DNA from: Hysterangium stoloniferum
Taxonomy: Eukaryota; Basidiomycota; Agaricomycetes; Hysterangiales; Hysterangiaceae
Length of the DNA stretch: 64,000 bases
Direction of reading: 5' to 3'
Assembly (NCBI GenBank): GCA_015178975.1
Contig: WHVD01000032.1
Span: forward strand, 248,001-312,000
Numbering within the stretch: the stretch's first letter is position 1; each line of letters begins with the position of its first letter. The notes under the pieces were generated by a model, which was not told the origin of the DNA, did not search any database, and saw only the letters and a program-made list of their open reading frames with translations. The position numbers and the translations under genes were made by a program. Shown in pieces: positions 8,896-64,000 of this stretch.

Positions 8896-9866
8896 TCAGT
8901 CTACATTTATGGGACTAAGTTTTTTCCTTACCTCCTCAGCCATCTCCTCAGGGAGCTCTGTGACCTCTGCAGGAACCCTGTCCTCATCCGACCTGGCATC
9001 CTCGGAACTCCCGACTTGCAGCTCTTCATACATATAGCCACCATACTCTGCCAGGAACTTCCAAAACTCCTCGCAGAGTCTGCAAAGTTCCTTTGCCACC
9101 ACAATTTGGACTTTGTTGCTCTTCTGGAGCAACTCGTTTTGGGCCTCTATGCCCTCAGCGATCCATCCCAAGACCTCATCCAACCTGGAAAACCCATCTG
9201 ACCTGCTGATGTCTTGCACCCTGGACCCCGTGGCCTGCTTGTGAACCAAAGAGCACCTCGCTTTGAGGTGCGTACATTGGTAGCAGCCCGGACCCTGCCT
9301 GGACTTTCAGTTGCATTCAGTGTTCTGGTCATTATAACTGGAACACCGCAGGTCATTCCGTGTTGGTAGGCAGACTGGTGCTGCCTTCCTTGCCTTCTGT
9401 TGATATGGTTAGTTCCCCAGATGCTCCCACAGACCCGAGACTTACCTTTTGGGGGCTCTCCAGCTCCCCCTCGGACTCGGACTCAACCTCTGTCGCCTTG
9501 TGCTGAAAATGCCAAGTCAGTCAAAAATGACATGTTGTTTCTATGGGACTTACCTTGCCCCTTGCCCACGGCAACCGCGGCCCTGTCTACAGCCACCCAT
9601 GCTTTCTCCACAGCCACCCGTGCAGCCTCCTCCTCATCTCTTTTCTTTTGCCTCTCAGCCTCTTCCTCCACAGCCAATGCCGCCTGGTACTCCCTGTCCA
9701 GGGCCTCCTCAGCCTCCCTGGCCTCCTTCTCTGCTTCCTCATGTAGTTGGTGCTGTTCCTCTCATTGTGCCAAAATTTGGGCTGCACTGAGAGGTGCCTG
9801 ATATGGAGGGCCCGTGGAGGGCCCGGCAGTCAGCATAGGTCTTATTGGCATTGGTTTGGGACCCAT
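8896..9866 (-). pseudogene. Antisense Zn2Cys6-like/coiled-coil gene of Ty3-A element 1
   Basis: Three exons on the strand opposite gag-pol: 9866-9554, 9502-9446 and 9396-8896, with gtaagt...ag introns of 51 and 49 bp. Exon 1 gives a charged Glu/Lys/Arg/Ala-rich helix (likely coiled coil). Exon 3 contains the cysteine cluster, with the second Cys replaced by Tyr and an in-frame stop after the third Cys, followed by GYMYEELQ and an acidic tail ending SPINVD. Another stop interrupts exon 1. A TATATAAA box lies about 60 bp upstream of the ATG. It is a decayed copy of the gene better preserved at 28756-31122. The function is unknown; DNA binding is an inference from the signature. Confidence 0.7.
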
Positions 9867-27044: not shown

Positions 27045-27692
27045 TCATGGTAAGGACTTTGTGAAGATATCGGCTAAATTGTCCTTGGTATTTATTTCAT
27101 TGACACTGATTGTTCCATCGGTGATCCTTTCACGGATGTAATGATATTTGATATCAATATGTTTTGTTCTCTTGTGATAAACATTGTTTGAGGCAATTGA
27201 TCGAGCTCCAAGGGAATCACTGAAAAGGTTAATAGGAAGATCAACTTCAAAGAAGAGTTGTTGAAGCAAAGATATGATCCATTGTGTGTGTTTGGAGCAT
27301 TCTGTGAGGGCCATGTATTCTGCTTCGGTTGAAGATAATGCAACAGTTTGTTGTCTTTGTGTGGCCCATGCTATTGCTCCCCCTGAGAGAATGAAAGTAC
27401 ATATATCCTGTTGTTGATTGGCAATTGTCCTTGTCTCCCACCCAATCAGAATCACTGTATCCAATCAGTTCTGTGGAATTATTCCTTCCATAGGTCAATG
27501 TGCATTGTTGTGTCATTGCAAGATACTGTAGGGTATGCTGAGTGGCATTTAAGTGAGCAGATGTAGGATTAGAACTGTACTGTGAGAGTCGATTGACCAC
27601 ATAGCATATATCCAGCCTTGTTCCCAGCATGGCATACATGAATGATCCGACAAGTTGTTGATAGCTTGTCCTAACTGTGTAATCCGAGTCAG
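27045..27692 (-). pseudogene. pol: Copia RT C-terminus and RNase H
   Basis: Minus frames read FMYAMLGTRLDICYVVNRLS, GYSDSDWVGD (27480), VALSSTEAEYMAL (27340) and HKRTKHIDIKYHYIRE (27160), the signature series of Copia RNase H. A one-base shift near 27450 separates two frames. The N-terminal continuation resumes at 37136 beyond the inserted Ty3 element. Confidence 0.85.
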
Positions 27693-28551
27693 TGTTAAAG
27701 AGTGTGTGGAGCTTATCAGAGGGTTTCTGGAGAAACCCGTGGGAAAGCCGGTAGGACTTGGCTTCAGCTTATAGGCTGTGCCCTGCGAGATTGTGAGGTC
27801 CAATTTGAGATGGTGGATGGGAAAAATGGGGAGTCTGGGAGTAGTTGGTGGTCAAGGGGTCAGGTGGTGATGAGTCAGAGGTTGAATGATAGATGGGTCG
27901 GAGCCCATGGGCTCCAATGAGGTAAATAGCGGTGTGTTTCAAAGAGGAGATTAGAGTGGAAAATGTACTGAGATTACTGGGGGAATCTAAGCTGATTTTC
28001 TAACTAGATTGTATGTACAACATCTGCCAAACTATATAGACTGTGGAATGTATAACATACCAAATCCAGTAATAATGAAATCCAAACTAGTAATCATGAA
28101 ACAAGATAAGTAAACACCAAATTTGGTGTTAGGAATGGAACAGAGCAGAGCGGAGTCTGAAATGTGACAGGTCGTTAGACCATAATGGGAACGGGGTGGG
28201 AGCAGAGTCTGAAATGTGACAGGTCATTTGACCATAATGGGAATGGGGCAGGAGCAGAGTCCAAAATGTGACAGGTCATTTGACCATAACAGGAACAGGG
28301 CTCAGTTAGAGAGCTGTCAGGTTTTCTGAGAGGAGTCCAATGACTGGTACGTGGGACAGGGTTGGAGATAGACAGGCATGGGTCCCGGCAGGTATTCCAG
28401 TGACTGATACATGAAGTAATGAAGGTTGAGCATGGACAGGTTTGATGTCCAGAGTCCAGCGGATATTCTGGTAAATTGATGACTGGTGTGTGTAGGGTGT
28501 GGGTGCATATAGGGTAGTGCCAGGAGTCTGGCAGGTTTTCCAGATGTAACA
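27693..28551 (-). repeat. 3' LTR of Ty3-A element 2 (859 bp)
   Basis: Contains three tandem copies of a ~57-bp unit (28156-28299: aatgtgacaggtca...ccataatgggaa) where the partner LTR has two, which accounts for the length difference. It has the palindrome aacaccaaatttggtgtt near 28116 and the TATA-like tatatag near 28035. Confidence 0.9.
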
Positions 28552-28755
28552 GTACCCTCCCTTTATGCCAAAGTTCCAAAGAGGCTCTAGAACTTGATAA
28601 GGTTTGTTGGTTACACGCATGTGTCAGAATGTCATGTCAGTTACACATATGTGTCAAAGAGTCATGTGATCTGGAAGGTAAGGTTCAGATGTGATGAGCC
28701 TATAGAAAAAATTGAAAAAATAAAAATTTCTTGTTCTTTATTACCCCCATCATCA

Positions 28756-31122
28756 ATGGGTCCAAAACCAACACCTCGCAAACTGATGCCCACTGGCCCT
28801 CCATGGGCTTCCCATATTGGGCTCCACTCACTGCTGCCCAGATCTTGGTGCAGCGGAATGAGCAGTGTCGACAAAGGGAGGAAGTGGAAAAACAGGCCAA
28901 GGAGGCCAAGGAGAACTTGGACAGGGAGTACCAGGCAGCGCTGGTCACAGAGAAAGAGGCTGAGGTGGAAAGGAAAAGAGATGAGGAGGAGGCAGTGCAG
29001 GTTGCCACGGAGTGTGCCAAGGCAGCTGGGGAGAAGGCCACATTTGCCATGGGAAAGGTAAGTCTCGGTGATCCACAGAGTCGAATCTACTGACTCTGCC
29101 TTTTTAGTGCAAAGTGGTAGAGGTCAAGCCGGTGTAGAGAGTTCAATCGGAAAGTAACCTATATGGCAATAGTTTCAAGTCATGTCACAGCACAAATTCT
29201 TATATATACTTTGGCACTCAAGACGACTTCTACACAGCCAAATCAGTTTCATCAAACAGACGACCAAAACTCCATCATGTTCAACACTGCATCGTCCTCC
29301 AAAGTAACCCTCAGTTCCTACTCGAAACCGACTCTTCACTCCCAAATAGAACTCCAGCCAATAACATCTCACTTCTCCTCATCCTCAGACATCATTTCCA
29401 AGCCCCTACCAGCCCACTCATGCTCCTCCAAGAAATACCATCGTTTCCTCCATTGACAAGGTATTCGACTCCCATATGCTCCAGATGATCCTGTCTTCAT
29501 TCGTATAGAGCACTATAATGGCTCCTCTGAAATCCTCCACTATCAATTCGATCGAGTGTTCCAGCAGGACTGTTCCCCACCGTCATCGGGAATCTATTAC
29601 ATGGCAACGTTCACTCCAGTAGGAGATCACAGAGGACCCAAGTTATTTAGGACCCCGGTTCCAGAGGGAAGTCAAGTAGAGCCTCGTCGAGGTCGTCGTC
29701 AATTCGTGTTCCTTGCGCGGTTGTGGAGCCTACTCACCACTTGGTTCTAAAATGGTGATTGATTGTGTCCCCTCCTTATACTGCAAAACTAGGAACACAA
29801 TACATCCAATCTCGGTTCATCGATTGGTAATATTGTCAAGATTTCGAAATCAAGCATAGCATTTGAGGGTGATGCATTATCATGGGATTCCTGTGTTTCT
29901 GACTCATATCATCGATGTTTCATCAGCCATCACTTCTATTACTCCATCATCCCTATTGTCTGACTCACTTCCCCTATTGTTCTATTGTGTTTCCCCATTT
30001 ATCCGTATCACATGTCGGATCTCATCTTTTGTTTGTCATTCTCTTATTGTTCAGCGCAGCCTCCCCCTATTATTGTTCACAGCTTTACTAACACTCCTAT
30101 TGTGATGACTCAGAGATGACTCACACCATATCGCATCGTTATTGTGTTGTTGTTTGTAGATGTTTGATTTGACCTGTGCTCTCTCATGTATATAAGGGCC
30201 TCTCTTTTGCCCACTATGGAACAAGCAATTTCGTTGTATCTCATTTCGAAGCTCATTCTTAAGGACAATCTCTTAAGTCTTACTCTCAGTCTCACTCCTA
30301 CGGCCAGTAAGGGATACTGTGGTGTCTCTTATTGTTGAAGTTCTACACTCCTCGACATTGGGATTATGTCAGCCTTTTGTATTCATCTTCATTTACGTCA
30401 TCCAAGGTCCGATCTCTAGCCTCTCGCTCTGAGTGTGTTTGGTTATACACTGGTTTCAAGAACGACTGTGTCAGTGACCGTCATAAAGACTTGACCATTG
30501 CGTGCAGGTTATTAGGTCTTTTCCTAGTAGCGAACTTACACCGGAATCTGAGGGGGAGCTGGAGAGCCCCCAAAAGGTAAGTCTTGGGTCCATGGGATAT
30601 TCTGGGGACTAACCACATCAACAGAAGGCAAGAAAAATGGTCCCAGTCTGCTTGGAGGTGAAGAATGACCCACAGTGTTCCGGTTGCAATGACCAGAACA
30701 CTGACTGCCATCAGAAGTCTGGGCAGGGACCAGGCTGTTGGCAATGTGCACACCTCAAAGCGAGGTGCTCACTTGTTCACGAGCCCATGGGGTCCATGGC
30801 ATGGGAAGTAGGTGGACTAGCGGAGAGGCCTGGGGCCTTGGAGGAGGTTTTGGGGTGGATAGCTGCAGGCATAGAGGCCCAGAATAAGTTGTTTGAGAAG
30901 TGCAACTGGGTGCAGGTAGTCATGGCAAAAAATCTCCAGGGGCTCCATGGGGAGTTTTGGGTATTTCTGGCAGAGTATGGTGGGTATGTGTATGCAGAAC
31001 TGCAGATCAGGAGTTGTGAGGAGCCCAGCTCGGATGAGGATGGGGTTCCTGAGGAGATAGCAGAGCTCCCAAAGGAGATTGCTGAGGTTGGGCAGAAGCA
31101 TAGCCCTATAAATGTAGATTGA
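28756..31122 (+). CDS. Antisense Zn2Cys6/coiled-coil gene of Ty3-A element 2
   Basis: Lies opposite to gag-pol, between the pol end and the 3' LTR. Exons: 28756-29057, 29108-30576 (57 nt once the 1.4-kb insertion is removed) and 30625-31122, with gtaagt...ag introns of 50 and 48 bp. Exon 1 encodes APLTAAQIL then a long Glu/Lys/Arg/Ala helix, probably coiled coil. Exon 3 has C-x2-C-x6-C-x9-C-x2-C-x6-C (CSGC...CHQK...CWQC...ARC), exactly a Gal4-type Zn2Cys6 spacing, then GIEAQNKLFEK, AEYGGYVYAEL, an acidic Ser/Glu/Asp region and SPINVD. An early frame shift near 28800 and the exon-2 insertion break this copy. The function is unknown; regulation of the element is the inferred possibility. Confidence 0.65.
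29133..30540. mobile_element. 1.4-kb insertion inside the antisense gene, 4-bp duplication ccgg
   Basis: ccgg at 29129-29132 and 30541-30544 brackets TGTAGAGAG...AACTTACA. The other two elements have an uninterrupted 57-nt exon here. It contains TATATAAGG (30189) and is richer in CpG than its host element. TG...CA ends and a promoter-like box suggest a long solo LTR or a non-autonomous LTR-type element. No coding domain recognised. Confidence 0.6.
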
Positions 31123-31216: not shown

Positions 31217-34200
31217 TCAGAAACCTGTAAAAGCAAAGAGAGACATAGGGTGACAGGGAAAAATGAAAATGAATCCAACATAACATGGGGTCCACAGAGT
31301 GCAGTCAGAGAGAGGATAGTGGTCTGGGTTTGAGCAGGTAAGCTGTGTGAAAGTCAGTAACAATCTCCATGGCATTACCGAGTTCTGTGGCCAAAATCCA
31401 TGAAGTCTCTTTGTCTGTGCCCTCACAGCCCACCCACTTGACCAAGTAAAGCAGTTTAACAATTGCATCAACACTTATCTATTTTTGAATCTAAAATTTG
31501 TGAAATTTCAAACTCGGGTTCTCCATCAATAATGACTGGAGGAGGTGGAGATTGCATGTGATCTAGGATAGTGTTAGCAGTACACGGTTCTAGCATAGAA
31601 ACATGAAATACCGGGTGCACCACACACATGCTATCTGGAAGCTGTAGGGTCCATGAGACTGAACCTACTTTTGCTATTATTTCAAATGGACCTAAATATT
31701 TTTCAGCAAGTTTCTTTGATGGATGGGTAGTCCAGAAGAATTGAGCTTTGACAAAAACACGATCACCAATTTTTAAGTTGGGTGATGGAATCCGGTTTTT
31801 GTCTGCTGAATGCTGATATTGCTCTTGGGTGGACATTATGGTAGTCCTGAGTTCCCCAAGGAGCTTGTGTAGGTCTGTGATGAACTCTTGAGCATGGGTG
31901 GAGGTGAGATTTCATTCTGGGTGTACTGTAATATTTGGATTGTACCCTTTATTTGCAAAGAATGGGGAAATGCCGGTAGTGGCCAAGGGTGCATTGTTGT
32001 AAGCAAATTCTGCAAGTGGTAACAAGGATTTCCAATTGTCCTGTTGATAGTTGCAATATACACAGAGGTATTGTTCCAATGTCTGGTTGACACATTCAGT
32101 TTGTCCGTCGCCTTCCAGGTGATGTCTGGATGTGAAGTGTAACTTCATGTCCAAGGATTTTCTGAGGGATCTAAAGAAGTGAGATACAAACTCTGATCCT
32201 CAATTGGAAGTTACATAGGATGGGACTCCGTGCTTGGAAAATACATTGATAATAAAAAGTTCTGCTAACTGCATGGACATGATGGTATCATGTGTGGGGA
32301 CAAATGTATGTACCTTGTTTTGAGAATCTGTCAACAAAAACTAGAATGGTGGAAAAGCCTTCAGAGTCCAGTAGGTGTTCGATGAAATCCATAGAGATGG
32401 AATTCCATGGGTGTTCTGGTACCAGGAGTTGTTTCAGAAGGCTGTATGGCTTGTGATGCTGTGCTTTAGAGTGTGGACAAGTAATGCAAGATTTACAATA
32501 GTGCTTAATGAAGCCTCAGAGTCTGGGCCAAGTGTATTCTCTTCTTATTAATGATAGAGTTTTGTTGAACCCAAAATGTCCTGAGAGTGGGTGGTCATGT
32601 TTGTACTGGAGAATCCTGAGGCAGAGTCTGGCAGAGTCCAGTACATAGATATGATCATCAAGTCTAATTAAACCATGCTGGTTGAGAGACCACTGGGGTT
32701 GACCGGGGTCCACGGGATTGTCAAGGTGTGCTTTAGTTATTGGGTCTAGTGGAATTGCCAATAGAATATCTTGATGTAACTTCTCAATATCCATAATGAT
32801 AATTCCATGGAGGATGGGATGGATGAGGAAAGTCATGTAGACTGATGCAGTAAGCTGCTGGTTCGTGAAAATGGGTTTCAAGTTGTGTGGGTTTACCATG
32901 GCATAGTCGTTGCTCCCCTCTTTAAGATAGACATCCCATTGTTAGTTAAAGCATCGGGTTTGCCGCCAAGGTGACTGGGTTGAAAGCGGATAATCATATT
33001 GAAGGCTGATAGGTATTCAGACCAGTGGGCCTGCCAACGGGTCAAAAGTTTCATGGTAGAAAAGTATTCCAGGTTCTTGTGATCTGTTACAATGTCAATC
33101 GGCATTCCTGAGCCTTCCAAATAGTGTTGCCACATTTTGAAAGCTGAAAAGATTGTTAGGAGTTCCTTGTCATGAATGTCATAATTGAGCTCTGCTCCAG
33201 TGAAAGTCCAGGACAGAAAAGCCACAGGGTGAACTTCTCCATTGGAGTCCTGGATAGACAGAATGGCTCCAAGTGCATAGTCTGAGGTGTCCATCTCAAC
33301 AATGAGCGGGAAGTCCAGTTTCCAATGTGATAGAATTGGAGCTGACAAAAAAGAATCTTTTAAAAGATTGAAAGCTTTTTGACACTTATCATTAAAATTC
33401 CACAGAGTATCCTTGTGCATAAAATGAGTAAGGGGTACTGTGATGTTGGAATATCCACAGATAAAATGTCAGTAAAAATTGGCAAAGCTGAGGAAAAATT
33501 GTATATATTTGACTTTTCTGGGTTCCAGCCAATCTTTGATGACTTGTACTTTACTTTCATCCATACGGAGTCTGCTGGGTCCCATAATGAAACCTAGATA
33601 CTCCATGGAGTCTATGTCAAAAGTACATTTTTTACCATTCATGAATAAACCATGTTGTCTGAGTCTCCAGAGAACTTCACAGACTTGTTTGTCATGTACT
33701 GTGGGGTCCTCGGAGTAGATAAGAATGTCATCCAAGTAAACAATGATGCATACATTGAGCATGTCAGAGAAAATATCATTAATAAAATGTTGAAAAACAG
33801 ATGGAGCATTGGTGAGTCCAAAGGGCATCACCAACCACTCAAAGGCCCCATAACAGGTCTGAAAGTGGTTTTCCACTCATCTCCCACAGAGATCTGGACC
33901 AAATGGTAGGCATGTTTAAGGTCTATTTCAGTATAAATCCAGGCATTCCGTGGAGCATCGAGCAGGTCAGATATAAGTGGGAGTGGATACTTGTCCTTTT
34001 TTGTGACAGCATTGAGTCCTCTGAAATCAACACATACTCTGAGGGATGCATCCTTTTTCTTGACAAACAGAACAGGTGCTCCAAAAGGAGATTTGAGGGT
34101 CTGATAAAACCTATGGACAAATGTTCATCCAGGATATCCTGGATTGTGGAAGGTTCTGTGGAGGAAAGCTGGTAAATATGTCCAAGGGGTGGCTGGGCAC

Positions 34201-34900
34201 CTTTGTCAAGATCAATTTTTAAGTCATACTCTCTGTGGGGTGGAAGCTGGTCAGCTTTTTGCTTACTGAAAACATCTGCAAAGTCATGGTATTTCTCTGG
34301 GATGCCTTCTAGATCAGCAGTTTGCTCAGATGCAGATACTGGAGTTGAGAAACGAGTGGTTGCTTCATCAATTTTCAAATTGATAGTGAATGCCTGGGAT
34401 CCATCCATTTTTGTAGCCCTAATAAATGCTGCAGCATTAATGAAAGAAATAGACAGAGGTGCCGTGGGGTCTGGGGAAGCCATGGGTGCCGTAGGGATCA
34501 CGGGAATCCTCAAGACTGCAGGTGCCAGGAAGGCCATGGGTGCCATGGAGGCCATGTCGGATACAGTTATTGAGGGTGCCATGCGTGTCTGGAAAGTTAT
34601 GCTGTTTGCTACCCAGTCAATCAATGGATTATAGCAGGTAAGCCAGTTACATATGTCCTAGGACAACTGAGGAACTTGAGTCTAACTGGGTCACATAGAA
34701 AGTGACCAACTGAGATGTTCCACACAGGAACTGGATGGATAAATTGCAAGCTTGGGTGATAACCAAATTGCTTGTGCCATTGAAGAGTCAGAGTCTGACT
34801 GGATTTATTGGATAAGTTGACGACAGATTATTTTGCATGAATTTAGTATCTAAAAAACAATGAGTCAAGCCAGAATCTATGAGTGCTGAAAAAACAGATT
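31217..34900 (-). pseudogene. pol: Ty3-A pol (element 2)
   Basis: Minus order: protease (ALIDSGLTHCFLDTKF near 34890), linker, RT N-part (LSIGFIRPS, where a one-base loss shifts the frame), YLDD (near 33730), RNase H (VEMDTSDYALGAIL near 33290), integrase zinc region (GHFGFNKTLSLIRREYTW near 32560), core (HHLEGDGQTECVNQTLEQYL, with Arg to Cys in GQTER), TGA at 31912-31914 shared with element 1, and a chromodomain (CKLLYLVKWVG-like, near 31440) in a shifted frame. Multiple lesions; inactive. Confidence 0.88.
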
Positions 34901-34938
34901 TCAGAATCATATTAGACATAAGTTTAATAAAAAATGAG

Positions 34939-36297
34939 TCAGAGTTCAAAAGAGCAGATGTGTTGAGATGGGTAAACTTGTGAATGCATGGAGAGGTAAT
35001 GCAACCCCCAACCCGCATGGAGTCTGCAGGGTTGCTTACTCTTTTTTTGAGTTGGAAGCCAGTTTGTCCTTTGATGGGGATTCCATGGAGGAAGTCTTGG
35101 CTGTTCAACCTTTTGCAGAGTTTGCTTTTGCCAACAGACATTCTGGAACTCAATGGCCAGGTTTTCCACACAAGAGACAAAGGCTATTGTCCAGATGCCA
35201 CTGCCTTTCCTGTGGGGTGAGTTTGCCATTGGGTCCGAGCTTGCCTGTAAGGTTGGGTTTCCAGTTTGCTTGCCAGACTGCTGACCTTTGTTGTTGTTGT
35301 TGTTGTTGGAAGACTTTTTATCATTCTTCCGATCAGATTGTGTGGAGTTTTGGTTACTGGTAGATGGAGTGTTGTTGTTGGTTTTATTGGCCATGGACTT
35401 GGTGACCTTGTCCACAGAGGTCTCATGGGCAACTTCTGTGTGACATTCCCAATAACATGCATCCACATTTTGAGCCTTGAGGTGCATATGGGACAGTGTT
35501 TTTGGCTTGCCATCTTCTCCTTTTGAGACTTCATCTTTAAGTTGGGATGGCAGACTGGCATAGAACTGGTGGTGGAGAGTGCGATCGCCCCACTGACAAC
35601 GAGCTGCAAGATTGTTGAACTGGACAATATAGTTCATGATGCACTGGGTGTCCTTCATATGAAGATTGGTGAGACTGTTCTCGGCTTCTCTGGTTAGGTC
35701 ATATGGGCCAAAGTTGGTTTCTAGCTCCATACCAAAAGCATCCCAATCTTCAAGCCAAAGCAGGTCTTCCTTGGAAAGTCCACTAAAAGCCAGTTCAAAC
35801 CATTTCAATGCAGATCCCAAGAGGTATGAAAGTGCATAATTGACTTTTTGGGAGTCCGTGGAGAATGCAGTGGATCGATCATGGAGATTGAAGTGACATT
35901 GCATGAGGAAAGTGGAACGTTTGTTGGGGTTGGAACCCATGAAGGGTTCTGGAGCATTGACTTTTGACTGCAGAGGTTCCAGATCCTTCTTGCTGCCTTC
36001 TCGGAGCATGTGATTCATCAATCTCTCTAAAGTGATTGCTAACAACTCAGAGGTGTCCGCAAGTGGTGGTTGATCATTAGACAGGGAATTTTCGACACCT
36101 TTGCCCTTGTTGGGGGCCACAGACCTGCCCTCGTGCTCGGATTCGTCCGGGTTTTCCCAGACTTCTTCAATACAGGCTTCTTCCATGGTGTCCAGCTGGT
36201 TTGTGAGTGTCTGGCTGGTATACAAAGTAAGTGGGGAATGAAGAGTTGAAGGTCCAGGTAATGATTCCTGTACCTGTGCTTTTCTTCTTGGTGGCAT
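34939..36297 (-). pseudogene. gag: Ty3-A gag (element 2)
   Basis: Starts MPPRRKAQVQ. It is continuous through the capsid-like region (ALKWFELAFSGL, HHQFYASLPSQLKDE) and the Asn-rich linker. It then shifts frame, so the zinc knuckle (CLLC...-type, near 35160) is out of phase and the tail is missense. It is better preserved than the gag of element 1. Confidence 0.85.
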
Positions 36298-36317
36298 ATT
36301 GACAATCTGTGAGTCTT

Positions 36318-36330: not shown

Positions 36331-37135
36331 TGTTAAAGAGTGTGTGGAGCTTATCAGAGGGTCTCTGGAGAAACCCACAGGAAAGCCAGTAGGACTTGGC
36401 TTCAGCTTATAGGCTGAGCCCTTGTGAGATCGTGACATCAAATTTCAGATGGGCAGATGGGAATCCCAGGGAGTCCAGGAGTAGTTGGTGGTCAAGGGGT
36501 CAGGCGGTGATGAGTCAGAGGTTGAATGATAGATGGGTCGGAGCCTGTGGGCTCCGATGAGGTAAATAGTGGTGTGTTTCAAAGAGGAGATTAGAGCAGA
36601 AAATGTACTGAGATTACTGGGGGGAATCTAAGCTATTTTTCTGACTGGATTGTATGTACAACATCTGCCAGACTATATAGACTGTGGAATGTATAACATT
36701 CCAAATCCAGTAATAATGAAATCCAAACTAGTAATCATGAAACGAGATAAGTAAACACCAAATTTGGTGTTAGGAACGGAATGGAGTGGAGCAGAGTCTG
36801 AAATGTGACAGGTTGTTAGACCATAATGGGAATGGGGCGGGAGCAGGGTCTGAAATATGACAGGTCATTTGACATAATGGGAATGGTGCTCAGTTAGAGA
36901 GCTGTTGGGTTTATGAGAGGAGTCTGGTGACTGGGATGTGGGACAGGGTCAGAGATAGGCAGATGCAGGTCCTATTCCAGTGACTAATATGTACATGAAG
37001 TAATGAAGGTCGATCACAGACAGGTCTGACATCCAGAGTCCAGTGGGTATTCCAGTAAACTGATGACTGGTGCATGTAGGGTGTGGCTGCATATAGGGTA
37101 GTGCCTGGAGTCCAGTAGGTTTTCCAGTCATAACA
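36331..37135 (-). repeat. 5' LTR of Ty3-A element 2 (805 bp)
   Basis: On the minus strand TGTTATGACTGG...TTTAACA. It has TATATAG at 36680-36674, the 18-bp palindrome near 36766, the 20-nt motif (as its complement) near 36391 and the stem-loop near 36362. Confidence 0.92.
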
Positions 37136-38170
37136 GTCAGCTTCTGTGTTTGCTATTAGAGTAGTCCCTGCAGGGAAGGGGGTGCATGCAGGCCAACAGT
37201 TCTTCATATTAAAATAATCAATTATTCATTGAATGTAATGAGTTTGATCTATTGTTATGGTCTTCTTATAGTGATTTCGAGTGATGTGGAGTCCTAGAAA
37301 GTGTTCGATTCCCCCTAAATTGGTGTATTTGTACTTGGAACCAATAAAGCTTTTGACATCTTGTATGTTTTTCAAGGTCCTTGTCCTTCTCAGCTTTCCA
37401 TTTCTTTCATTCACTTTGCACTTCCTCTTTTGAGAGATTGCACTGTTTGCATCGACAGTCTCATTCCCAGTGCCTTGGGGCACCACAGAAGTTACAAGTA
37501 TTGTTAGTCCTCCTTTTTCCTTGTTTTATGGCATTAACTGAAGTATCCCTTGTCATAGTTCTTCAGATAAAATGCAGGCACACATATTTGCAGAGGTGAG
37601 TGTCTTGTAATCACTCACATTTGCTAGGATGGTTTGTTGAATTATTTCGTATGTAGGTGGCAAGGCACAAAGGATGAGGAGCACATGGAGGCTATCTGCA
37701 ATGGGCATTCCAGCAGTTTCAATGCAGGAGTGGTATTCAGACATTTTGTCTATCTATTGTGTGAATGGAAGATGGGTTGTGATAGATGTATTGAATTATT
37801 TGATGATGTTGACCAAAATATTGAGTCCTGTGTGAGTGCCATAAGTTTCTTGTAGTCTTTTCCAGTTGTCTGTGAGGCTCTCATCATCTTTGATAGATTG
37901 CCTGATCATTGGCTTGATTGTGAGTTGTATCAAGCCTAGTCCTTCATCATTTCTTCTGTCCCATTTGTTAATGGCCTGTGTTTCTTCACTCATAGGGGGT
38001 CCCAGGTGCTTTTGGTGTAGGGCGAGTCTCATTTCCCTCAGCAATGCATAGTATGTGCATGAGGCAAAATGCACTTCATACTGAATATGACCAATCTTCC
38101 CAATTTGTTCCATCAAATTTTTCAATTGAACTGAGGAGTCTGGAAGCAGTTGATGACATGTTTTGAGTGT
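37136..38170 (-). pseudogene. gag: Copia-1 gag fused by deletion to RT C-terminus
   Basis: Gag frame 38125-37796 (ALLREMRLALHQKHLGPP, QAINKWDRRNDEGLGLIQLT) continues to a CCHC knuckle (CNFCGAPRHWE.DC near 37500). Directly after KAEKDKDLEK the sequence enters the RT end: IEHFLGLHITRN...TITIDQTHYIQ (37320-37230) and CTPFPAGTTLI (37170). Everything between gag and the RT end is deleted. Confidence 0.8.
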
Positions 38171-38252
38171 TGCAAAAAGATGTGTGTGTTGTAGATGTTG
38201 TCAAGTGATAATAATGCTATACGTATGTTAGGCAATGGGGCCCATAACCTAT

Positions 38253-47368: not shown

Positions 47369-48652
47369 ATGGTCCAAACCCACACCTCAAAAATCAAATG
47401 CAACAGCCAGACTGTCCATGGGGGCCAGTTGTTAGAGTATGATACTACAGCTCTAACATAGTCTATTATGATCTCTATATTTTTCTGATATTTGTAGTAT
47501 TTTTCCCAGCACTGTAGGTGCAGTATTGAGTGAGTTACCTTAGGTCGGTACCTCCTGTATAGGTGCTTAGATAAGTACCTAGTAGTATAGTCCACTGTGG
47601 GTGTGGGAAAGTCTCCTTAGTGTTTACTTTCCAATCACACTCACAGGTATGTCTTTACAGTTGAATATACTTAGTGTTTACTTTCCAATCACACTCACAG
47701 GGGTGTTCTGCAAAGTGTTATTCAACTGTTTCAACACCAGTTACCAGGCCCCTCTCACCACTGCTCAAATACTTGAGCAGTGTGAAGAACAGCAGCAGCA
47801 ACAGGACAAGGAGGAAAAAAGGGTGAGAGAGAAGGAGGAGGAGCTTGAGTGAGATTACCAGGCTGCACTGGCCGCTGAGAGGGAGGTAGAAGAGGAAAGG
47901 AAGAAGGCAGAGGAGGAGGTGGCATGGATTGCTGTAGAGCATGCCAGAGCAGCTGTGGAGAAGGCTGCAGGCAAGGTAAGTCAACTTCTTCCCTTTCTTT
48001 CCTGACTTCACTTACCATTACTCTCTAGTGCAAAGCAGTAGAGGTAGAGTCAGAGTCCAAGGGGGAGGCCGAGAGCCCACACAAGGTAAGTGGCAAGGTC
48101 CATGGATATGTCTGAGACTGACCAAACAACAACAGAAGTCAAAGAAAATGGCTCCAGTACATCTGGAGTCAAAAAAATGTCCTGTGATGCACAGGGTGCA
48201 ATGACTGCAACACAGTGTTACCAGAAGTCTGGCCAGGGCTTGGGCTGTTGGCCAGGGCTTGGGCTGTTGGCCATGTGCACACCTCAAAGTGAGGTGCTCA
48301 CTGGTTCATGAGCCCATGGGGTCTGTGGCACGGGAAGTGGGTGGCTTGGCAGAAAGGCCTGGGGCCTTGGAGGAAGTTTTGGGGCAGATATGTAGTGGTG
48401 GGCATAGAGGCCCAGAACCTGTTGCTTGAAAAGAGCAACTGGGTGCAAAGGATCATAATGGAGAGTCTCCAGGGACTCCATGGGGAGTTCCAGGAGTTCC
48501 TGGCAGATTATGGAGGATTTGTGTGTGAGGAGTCCAAGGGCAGGAGTTCCGAGGAGCCCAGAGAGGAATCTGGGGTGGCTGAGGAGCTGGTGGAGCTTCA
48601 GAAGGACTTTAATGAAAATAGGCAAAAACATAGCCCCATTAATGTAGATTGA
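47369..48652 (+). pseudogene. Antisense coiled-coil/Zn-cluster gene of element 3
   Basis: TATATAAA at 47309, ATG at 47369. Exons to 47976, 48029-48085 (57 nt) and 48136-48652. Introns of 52 and 50 bp have gtaagt donors, at the same places as in elements 1 and 2. Exon 1 is split by a solo LTR. It retains APLTTAQILEQ, the Glu-rich coiled coil, ADYGGFVCEE and SPINVD. The Cys cluster is damaged, partly by a 19-bp tandem duplication (48234-48272). Confidence 0.65.
47430..47736. repeat. Solo LTR, family E (307 bp), TSD ccagt
   Basis: TGTTAGAGTATG...GTTTCAACA with ccagt at 47425-47429 and 47737-47741. It holds an internal duplication of cttagtgtttactttccaat. Confidence 0.88.
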
Positions 48653-63034: not shown

Positions 63035-63165
63035 TATATCAGTATGAATGGATCAAAGTTTCAGATGGATGAGACAAAGGTACAATGGGTGGTGTTGTTC
63101 ACGAAGACTGGTTGAGCTGCCCTTTTTGCAAACCAGCTCATGAAACGGTGGAGTCAAGGAGAAAT

Positions 63166-63543
63166 GGTGGTTTCATGGGAAATGGTGGTTTCATGGGAAA
63201 TGGTGGTTTCATGGGAAATGGTGGTTTCATGGGAAATGGTGGTTTCATGGGAAATGGTGGTTTCATGGGAAATGGTGGTTTCATGGGAAATGGTGGTTTC
63301 ATGGGAAATGGTGGTTTCATGGGAAATGGTGGTTTCATGGGAAATGGTGGTTTCATGGGAAATGGTGGTTTCATGGGAAATGGTGGTTTCATGGGAAACG
63401 GTGGTTTCATGGGAAATGGTGGTTTCATGGGAAACGGTGGTTTCATGGGAAACGGTGGTTTCATGGGAAACGGTGGTTTCATGGGAAATGGTGGTTTCAT
63501 GGGAAATGGTGGTTTCATGGGAAACGGTGGTTTCATGGGAAAC
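63166..63543 (+). repeat. 18-bp minisatellite, 21 copies
   Basis: Unit ggtggtttcatgggaaat. Most variation is aaatgg versus aaacgg, concentrated in the right third. The unit is a multiple of three and has no stop in any frame, so all six frames are open. Confidence 0.97.
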
Positions 63544-64000
63544 CTTTGCACAGACCTTTGAACGCAAGTGTTTCCCAGCCGATGAAGCAGCTATGGCCCA
63601 TATCAAATTAGAACAACTTACCACCAAGCCCAAAGAACGGTCAATGAGTACACAGATGAGTTCCAAGAACTCATTGACCTTGCAGGTTACAAGGACCCTC
63701 TGGCCATTGTCATGAAGTACTGACATGGACTATTACTGAGCATCCAGGCCAAGGTTGCAACAATGGAAAACTGCCCGAAGGACAATGACAAACAGGGCTG
63801 GTACAATGCTGCCTCCCACTTCAACCAAAACTGAAATGAGAATGATATCTTTCACTCTGCAGGTGTCATGACACAACTGGTCTCACTGAAGCCCCCGATG
63901 CTCCCACGTGTTGTTCCCCCACATCCCCCATATCCTACACCAATACTGCCCCCCTCTAAACCAATTGATATAATGGATGTCAATGCAGTCACCAAGCTCA
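63544..64000 (+). pseudogene. gag: Ty3/gypsy gag fragment running off the window
   Basis: FERKCFPADEAAMAHIKLEQL, then (frame change) EYTDEFQELIDLAGYKDPLAIVMKY and QGWYNAASHFNQN with stops, the standard Ty3 gag capsid order. It is a lineage different from family A. The minisatellite lies at its N-terminal side. Confidence 0.8.

What the first reader, a model, noticed from the sequence alone, without database searches (positions are those of the whole stretch)
28756..31122. Antisense Zn2Cys6-type gene carried by a Ty3 chromovirus
All three family-A elements carry, between pol and the 3' LTR, a gene on the opposite strand (8896-9866, 28756-31122, 47369-48652). The best copy shows C-x2-C-x6-C-x9-C-x2-C-x6-C, the Gal4-type binuclear cluster spacing, plus a coiled coil and an acidic tail, the layout of a fungal transcription factor. 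Retention in three independent, TSD-flanked or LTR-bounded copies argues that it is part of the element. A retroelement-encoded regulator read from the antisense strand would be unusual. DNA binding is inferred.
Basis: partly seen in the sequence, partly recalled or inferred. Interest (0 to 1): 0.87.

Follow-up and report, generated by a model that had tools for sequence, protein, structure and literature searches.

The report
Retrotransposon with a backward-strand regulator gene
A retrotransposon family in a fungus that is likely the false truffle Hysterangium stoloniferum carries, on the strand opposite its own genes, an extra gene preserved by purifying selection that is predicted to be spliced and to make a zinc-binding nuclear protein that would likely regulate the element itself.

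Summary
The stretch 28756-31122 is a damaged copy of a predicted three-exon gene, antisense to gag-pol, between pol and the 3' LTR of a Ty3 chromovirus. Exon 1 is frameshifted, exon 2 is split by a 1.4-kb repeat, exon 3 is open. Elsewhere in the genome (likely Hysterangium stoloniferum) the gene is intact in a complete element with identical LTRs and a target-site duplication. TATA box, ATG and intron signals recur in 42-46 of 53 copies. Exon 3 is under purifying selection (median dN/dS 0.20). Of 101 best pol copies compared, 98 keep exon 3 or a large part of it in place. The six cysteines are nearly invariant. The Gal4-type label is only partly right: Pfam scores stay below the cut-off, and the half-clusters look swapped. 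Antisense accessory genes in LTR elements, including fungal Boty, are published, so this is a new variant of a known kind. Best mechanism: a nuclear DNA-binding regulator of the element's own LTR (inferred). Expression, splicing, zinc and DNA binding are untested.

The parts
28756..29057 (+). copy B, predicted exon 1 (charged Ala/Glu/Arg-rich helix); frameshifted near 28797
   Evidence: tblastn with L039 exon 1; donor GTAAGT at 29058; frames printed
28700..28709 (+). copy B, TATA-like box of the antisense gene (CTATAGAAAA; TATATAAAA in most copies)
   Evidence: sequence; 42 of 53 copies keep TATATA/TATTTA; copy B counts as a miss there because its insert displaces this part
29108..29132 (+). 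copy B, 5' part of predicted exon 2
   Evidence: acceptor TTTTTAG ending at 29107; comparison with other copies
29133..30540 (+). repeat insertion (solo-LTR-like, TG...CA) that splits exon 2 of copy B; not part of the gene
   Evidence: 41 matches listed, 37 others full length at 95-97%; CCGG on both sides
30541..30576 (+). copy B, 3' part of predicted exon 2 (acidic ESEGELESPQK)
30577..30624 (+). copy B, predicted intron 2 (GTAAGT ... CTAAC ... CAG)
   Evidence: donor in 50 and acceptor in 51 of 53 copies
30625..31122 (+). copy B, exon 3, open: basic stretch, six-cysteine cluster, helix, acidic tail, stop
9554..9866 (-). copy A, predicted exon 1 (one stop)
9446..9502 (-). copy A, predicted exon 2 (57 nt, no stop)
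8896..9396 (-). copy A, exon 3 with one stop and second Cys changed to Tyr
48136..48652 (+). copy C, exon 3, frameshifted in the cluster; the upstream part (from about 47369) is broken too
31308..36312 (-). copy B gag-pol remnants (sense strand of the element)
27693..28553 (-). copy B 3' LTR as aligned (82% identical to 36331-37137)
36331..37137 (-). copy B 5' LTR as aligned

Best explanation
This Ty3 chromovirus family carries, antisense between pol and the 3' LTR, a gene under purifying selection that is predicted to be spliced from three exons and to encode a nuclear six-cysteine protein of about 294 residues that likely binds DNA and regulates the element's own transcription. Shown by sequence: the position, opposite strand, recurring TATA box, ATG and GT/AG sites, selection on the protein, near-invariant cysteines, and an intact copy in a complete element with identical LTRs. 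Inferred: transcription comes from the gene's own TATA promoter; the introns survive retrotransposition because the RNA that is copied is the sense strand, where they are not recognised; the protein dimerises through its helices, enters the nucleus through its basic KKARK stretch, folds a two-zinc cluster, and binds CCGG-centred repeats in the LTR U3 region, which lies upstream of both the sense promoter (5' LTR) and the antisense gene (3' LTR). That would let it tune gag-pol and its own gene.
For: Complete element L039: GCTGA directly outside both LTRs, 822-bp repeats at 100% identity, open gag (438 codons) and pol (1304 codons), gene intact. In 53 distinct copies (55 aligned; L040 and L041 dropped as duplicates): TATA in 42, ATG in 45, all four splice-site signals in 46. 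Exon 3 free of stops in the coding frame in 35 of 53, in the other five frames in 0-3 of 53. pN/pS 0.31 in the coding frame against 0.94-1.39 in four other frames (0.39 in the fifth, see against); median dN/dS 0.20 over 523 pairs of 33 copies. Exon 1 0.43 in 12 intact copies, with 0.58 in its mirrored frame and 0.97-1.18 in the rest; pol C-terminus 0.49 as benchmark. Exon 3 lies 205-221 bp from pol on the opposite strand for 91 of the 101 best pol copies compared, and 7 of the other 10 keep it whole or in large part in the same place. Cys conserved 0.99 against 0.72 for other residues in 46 of 53 copies of in-frame length. Element half-clusters resemble the opposite canonical half in 40 and 39 of 41 copies. 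TCCGG occurs 12 times in the L039 LTR; 500 shuffles gave mean 3.06, maximum 10. Own promoter and nuclear location are published for the comparable Grande gene23 (PMC7264820).
Against: Pfam Zn_clus stays under its cut-off in every copy scanned, and none of 52 whole-genome Zn_clus places overlaps the 145 gene places compared. Profile comparison with four host Zn_clus domains gives 12.8% probability over 13 columns. Only one of four copies tested as half-fragments matched Zn_clus at all. The AlphaFold2 model has mean pLDDT 49 and does not resolve the cluster (3 aligned rows). No significant match among solved structures. The non-coding spacer between gene and pol is as conserved (0.787, with 14% gaps) as exon 3 (0.772). 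One sense-strand frame also has low pN/pS (0.39), as expected from shared third positions; 0 of 53 copies are open there. One copy with open, 100% identical pol C-terminus (L064) keeps exon 1 but shows no exon 3 in the fetched stretch, so the protein may be replaceable in trans. No RNA or protein data.
Confidence: 0.45

Rival explanations
1. Accessory replication factor: the same protein acts after transcription, for example as a nucleic-acid chaperone, nuclear-import partner of the pre-integration complex or integration-site tether, not as a transcription regulator.
For: Basic stretch, cysteine cluster and long charged helices suit any nucleic-acid-binding role; retroviral accessory proteins are the comparison drawn in PMC7264820.
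Against: Its separate TATA box and antisense position mean it is not made with gag-pol; the U3 repeats fit a DNA-binding regulator.
Confidence: 0.22
2. Anti-silencing factor: the protein counters host silencing of the family at LTR repeats, as VANC proteins do for plant VANDAL transposons (recalled, not looked up).
For: Old copies are CpG-depleted (CpG o/e 1.17 over the L039 element, 0.33 over the copy A gene, 0.16 over copy B exon 3), which suggests methylation of the family; repeated CCGG-centred motifs in the U3.
Against: No credible family match in Pfam or NCBIfam; CpG decay alone is common for mobile DNA.
Confidence: 0.18
3. Antisense RNA: the transcript, not the protein, matters, through dsRNA or transcriptional interference with gag-pol.
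For: The promoter is the best conserved part (identity 0.863); PMC7264820 raises this role for plant elements.
Against: Codon-structured selection, near-invariant cysteines and conserved splice signals are not expected of an RNA-only role.
Confidence: 0.08
4. Passenger: a captured host gene fragment without a role in the element.
For: The cluster resembles host Zn2Cys6 halves.
Against: Purifying selection across deep divergence, and exon 3 or a large part of it in 98 of 101 best pol copies.
Confidence: 0.03

Closest known systems
brtn, antisense gene of Boty-like retrotransposons in Botrytis (Zhao et al. 2011, known to me only through passages and reference lists of PMC8365987, PMC4227169 and PMC7264820)
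   Same: Fungal LTR element with chromodomain pol; extra gene antisense, between pol and 3' LTR
gene23 of maize Grande and relatives in rice RIRE2 (PMC7264820)
   Same: Antisense accessory gene between pol and 3' LTR; own promoter; nuclear protein
   Different: Plant element; no clear similarity to known proteins; no introns mentioned in the text seen
TRP28 antisense ORFs of plant Retand (PMC11963269, abstract and passages)
   Same: Antisense, pol-3'LTR region, present in nearly all recent copies, predicted DNA binding
   Different: TRP28 domain (PF04195); non-chromovirus lineage; the word intron does not occur in the main text
Zn2Cys6 (Gal4-type) fungal transcription factors, PF00172
   Same: Six-cysteine spacing; helix and acidic region after the cluster
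   Different: Score below cut-off; half-clusters appear in the opposite order; sits inside the protein after a long charged helix
HBZ of HTLV-1 (named in PMC11963269 passages; antisense promoter in the 3' LTR per PMC7264820; domain details recalled)
   Same: Antisense-encoded nuclear regulator of a retroelement
   Different: bZIP protein, not a cysteine cluster; promoter inside the 3' LTR rather than between LTR and gene

Membership tests
Zn2Cys6 binuclear cluster family (PF00172) | C-x2-C-x6-C-x(5-12)-C-x2-C-x(6-8)-C spacing (recalled pattern) | tested here: met
   41 of 53 copies have the full spacing with x9 (the test tolerates a stop inside a half)
Zn2Cys6 binuclear cluster family (PF00172) | Pfam gathering score of 21 bits | tested here: not met
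   14.7 bits for copy B; 4 of 9 members match at E<=1, best 18.4 bits; 0 of 52 genome-wide Zn_clus places overlap 145 gene places
Zn2Cys6 binuclear cluster family (PF00172) | basic half-cluster first, then the second half | tested here: not met
   order reversed in the matches with shown coordinates and in 40/41 and 39/41 copies by a matrix from 19 host domains, leave-one-out 35 of 38 correct
Zn2Cys6 binuclear cluster family (PF00172) | binds two zinc ions and DNA | not testable with these tools
   needs protein; the model was unresolved
Antisense accessory ORF between pol and 3' LTR (aORF-3R of PMC7264820) | position between pol and 3' LTR, opposite strand | tested here: met
   L039; 91 of 101 pol copies, 0 same-strand
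Antisense accessory ORF between pol and 3' LTR (aORF-3R of PMC7264820) | present in most copies of the family | tested here: met
   91 of 101 plus 7 of the other 10 with exon 3 whole, in pieces or cut by a contig end; L069 a C-terminal remnant, L064 exon 1 only, L065 a 15-aa match to exon 1. Best pol copies only; older copies were not counted this way
Antisense accessory ORF between pol and 3' LTR (aORF-3R of PMC7264820) | transcribed antisense from its own promoter | not testable with these tools
   only the conserved TATA box and ATG are seen
Ty3 chromovirus | protease-RT-RNase H-integrase order with a chromodomain | tested here: met
   RVP_2, RVT_1, RT_RNaseH, H2C2, rve, SH3_Tf2-1 and Chromo (27.7 bits, cut-off 25.1) in order in L039 pol
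Boty brtn | protein homology to brtn | not tested
   sequence not held; two word-based protein searches, each scoring about 8,000 candidates, returned only two proteins, both named Hysterangium

The most novel reading that the evidence does not exclude
A retrotransposon that ships its own transcription factor on its antisense strand: an intron-bearing gene for a half-swapped (permuted) two-zinc cluster protein that reads CCGG repeats in the element's own U3 and so controls gag-pol from one LTR and itself from the other, a self-contained regulatory loop in a mobile element.
Probability: 0.22. Interest if true: 0.82.

Novelty: new variant of a known kind. Interest (0 to 1): 0.6.

Why it matters
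Antisense accessory genes of LTR elements have no established function (PMC7264820). This family offers many young, near-identical copies with the gene open, a gene structure with conserved promoter and intron signals, a measurable selection signal and a candidate target in the LTR, so the open question of what such genes do becomes testable. If the cluster really is a permuted Zn2Cys6 fold, it would also extend a large fungal transcription-factor family. Two gene models in public databases (BU17DRAFT_80596 and BU17DRAFT_86143) look like fragments of this mobile gene annotated as hypothetical host proteins (their genomic places were not checked).

Tried and rejected
Searching with the 161-aa exon-3 ORF found nothing (19 candidates, none scored E <= 0.001); the predicted 294-aa product and a 9-row profile found only P0001 and P0002, both named Hysterangium. 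Viral contigs: 74 pattern matches, none a relative. NCBIfam: nothing credible. Solved structures: three weak hits, best talin-1 at E 0.084, one at 0.52 with the profile. AlphaFold2 with the few permitted rows: poor model, so no fold search was run. Sense-strand reading of the region: rejected because 0 of 53 copies are open in the frame that shares third positions, and splice signals and ATG are on the other strand. Host-gene origin: not tested; besides this genome only prokaryote genomes can be searched, and the scored lists here are saturated by young copies. Codon-level sliding conservation showed no strong RNA-level element inside exon 3 except perhaps its last four codons. An opposite-strand accessory gene in a DNA transposon of Ectocarpus (PMC12477816, passages) is a more distant parallel.

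Full report
What is at the coordinates. The 64-kb window lies in contig C246 of a 111-Mb genome. The host is inferred to be Hysterangium stoloniferum: the two protein relatives found are named from that species, and one sits on a contig of 1,976,920 bases, the length of C334 here; a passage of PMC7550596 names the species as ectomycorrhizal Phallomycetidae. The finding's stretch is an old, damaged copy. Exon 1 (28756-29057) is frameshifted, exon 2 is split by a 1,408-bp insertion (29133-30540) with 37 other full-length copies at 95-97% among 41 listed matches, and exon 3 (30625-31122) is open. Copies A and C in the window are also broken. All three lie on the strand opposite pol.

The gene elsewhere in the genome. 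The protein search scored 150 copies out of 1,204 first-look candidates. With the young copy as query it scored 150 of 1,341. Copy L039 is a complete element: 822-bp repeats at 100%, GCTGA read directly outside both LTRs, open gag of 438 codons, open pol of 1,304 codons with chromodomain, and an intact antisense gene. I pasted 101 of the 150 best pol C-termini (3,701 first-look candidates) into a comparison with the 150 gene matches. 91 of 101 have exon 3 of the gene 205-221 bp beyond the end of pol on the opposite strand, and none has it on the same strand. The other ten were fetched: seven hold exon 3 in the same place, whole, in pieces or cut by a contig end; L069 has only a C-terminal remnant, L064 only exon 1 and L065 only a 15-aa match to exon 1. 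So 98 of 101 keep exon 3 or a large part of it. These are the copies best matching the young pol; older copies were not counted this way. Among the 29 loci L010-L038 fetched around the gene, most show pol on the opposite strand, but L022 has its nearest pol piece on the same strand and L032 has no pol match and a gag match on the gene's own strand, so old copies are also rearranged.

Gene structure. 55 copies were aligned; after dropping two duplicates (L040 identical to L039, L041 the same place as L010) 53 remain. A TATA box is found in 42, the ATG in 45 and all four intron signals in 46 of 53 (the tests allow common variants such as GTGAG, and copy B counts as a miss because its insert displaces the 5' part). 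Introns are 47-59 bp (29 copies). A gene with introns in an element copied through RNA is best explained by an antisense gene: the sense RNA carries the introns in reverse, where they are not recognised (inference). Mean pairwise identity is 0.863 for the promoter, 0.748, 0.824 and 0.772 for exons 1-3, 0.656 and 0.699 for intron interiors, and 0.787 for the spacer to pol (406 pairs of 29 copies). The spacer value weakens any argument from identity alone.

Selection. The stronger test is codon-based. For 33 copies with open exon 3, pN/pS is 0.31 in the coding frame and 1.02, 1.21, 0.94 and 1.39 in four other frames. The remaining frame, on the sense strand, gives 0.39, as it shares third positions, but 0 of 53 copies are open in it. 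Median dN/dS is 0.20 over 523 pairs with at least 8 synonymous differences; pairs are not independent, and choosing open copies favours low values a little. After leaving out CpG, TpG and CpA sites, third positions still differ most (0.28 against 0.11 and 0.06). Exon 1 gives 0.43 in 12 intact copies, with 0.58 in its mirrored frame and 0.97-1.18 in the other four, and the last 60 or so codons of pol give 0.49 (33 copies), so the gene looks constrained at least as much as that part of pol.

The protein. L039 predicts 294 residues: a short N-terminus, a long charged Ala/Glu/Arg stretch, an acidic exon 2, a basic KKARK stretch, the six-cysteine cluster, a helix modelled from residue 65 to 125 of the 161-aa copy B product, and an acidic tail ending in SPINVD. 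Over the 46 of 53 copies of in-frame length the cysteines are kept in 44-46 each and average 0.99, against 0.72 for the other residues; arginine is at 0.35, in keeping with CpG decay.

Is it a Zn2Cys6 protein? By the curated Pfam score, no: the best is 18.4 bits against 21, and none of the 52 Zn_clus places found in the whole genome overlaps the 145 gene places compared. In the matches with shown coordinates, the element's first half aligns with the profile's second half (positions 15-34) or its second half with the profile's first (positions 2-18). Unaltered half-fragments of one of four copies tested repeat this; the other three gave no Zn_clus hit. Profile comparison with four host domains aligns the element's first half with their second, at 12.8% probability. 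A matrix from 19 of 23 complete host domains (four near-duplicates left out; four incomplete loci and L077 gave no complete domain) tells canonical halves apart in 35 of 38 leave-one-out cases. It puts the element's first half with canonical second halves in 40 of 41 copies, and its second half with canonical first halves in 39 of 41; 12 of 53 copies lacking the complete spacing were left out. So the cluster is Zn2Cys6-like with reversed halves, or an independent six-cysteine motif. AlphaFold2 could not decide (mean pLDDT 49).

A possible target. The LTR of L039 holds TCCGG 12 times (both strands; shuffled mean 3.06, maximum 10 of 500) and GTCCGG 7 times (mean 0.88); internal repeats of the LTR inflate such counts. 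Seven of the 12 lie in the last 220 bp before the inner LTR edge, the U3 start in sense orientation. Of 37 LTR stretches tried, 30 aligned (L041 repeats the place of L010, and L040 the sequence of L039). Four of the seven sites keep TCCGG/CCGGA or a form one CpG change away (1875 in 23, 1934 in 26, 2060 in 28, 2066 in 29 of 30); two more (1993, 2080) seem kept but shifted by one alignment column; 1923 is not kept. Zn2Cys6 proteins are known for CGG-containing sites (recalled), so this is a lead, not a proof.

How it most likely works. I commit to an element-encoded nuclear regulator of its own LTR. Shown: gene, strand, position, selection, cysteines. Inferred: promoter use, splicing, nuclear entry, zinc, DNA binding, LTR target and regulation. 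Rivals are a post-transcriptional accessory factor, an anti-silencing factor, and an RNA-only role.

Prior art. [quoted passage not shown] PMC11963269 (abstract and passages) reports TRP28 antisense ORFs of Retand with predicted DNA binding. PMC4227169 and PMC8365987 (passages) mention brtn; the former gives a chromodomain for that element. Searches for a cysteine-cluster or basidiomycete case showed none in the titles and abstract starts listed; PMC3411680 on Laccaria elements and PMC2864245 on fungal chromoviruses appeared in a listing and were not read. The library lacks most subscription papers, so absence is weak evidence. Hence: a new variant of a known kind, interest 0.6.

Noticed in passing
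window 8896-9866 and 30625-31122 versus L039 1273-9375: CpG depletion with age: CpG observed/expected 1.17 over the young element, 0.33 over the copy A gene and 0.16 over copy B exon 3 (the stretches differ), suggesting methylation-driven decay.
   Followed up: partly
window 29133-30540: A solo-LTR-like repeat of 1.4 kb with 37 other full-length copies at 95-97% identity listed; its parent element was not identified.
   Followed up: partly
window 27045-27768 and 37226-38200, minus strand: Copia-like RNase H and reverse-transcriptase reading frames (motif recalled) flank element B, which may have inserted into a Copia element.
   Followed up: no
window 63142-63726: Short tandem repeat with a step of about 18 bp and overlapping open frames of 158-191 aa on both strands.
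   Followed up: no
L064 (C2:325100-327400): A copy with open, 100% identical pol C-terminus that keeps exon 1 of the antisense gene but shows no exon 3 in the fetched stretch.
   Followed up: partly
L002 and L072-L091 (contigs C115, C56, C113, C209 and others): Several small host groups of Zn_clus domains, some close together on one contig, with a pattern of halves in the usual order.
   Followed up: partly
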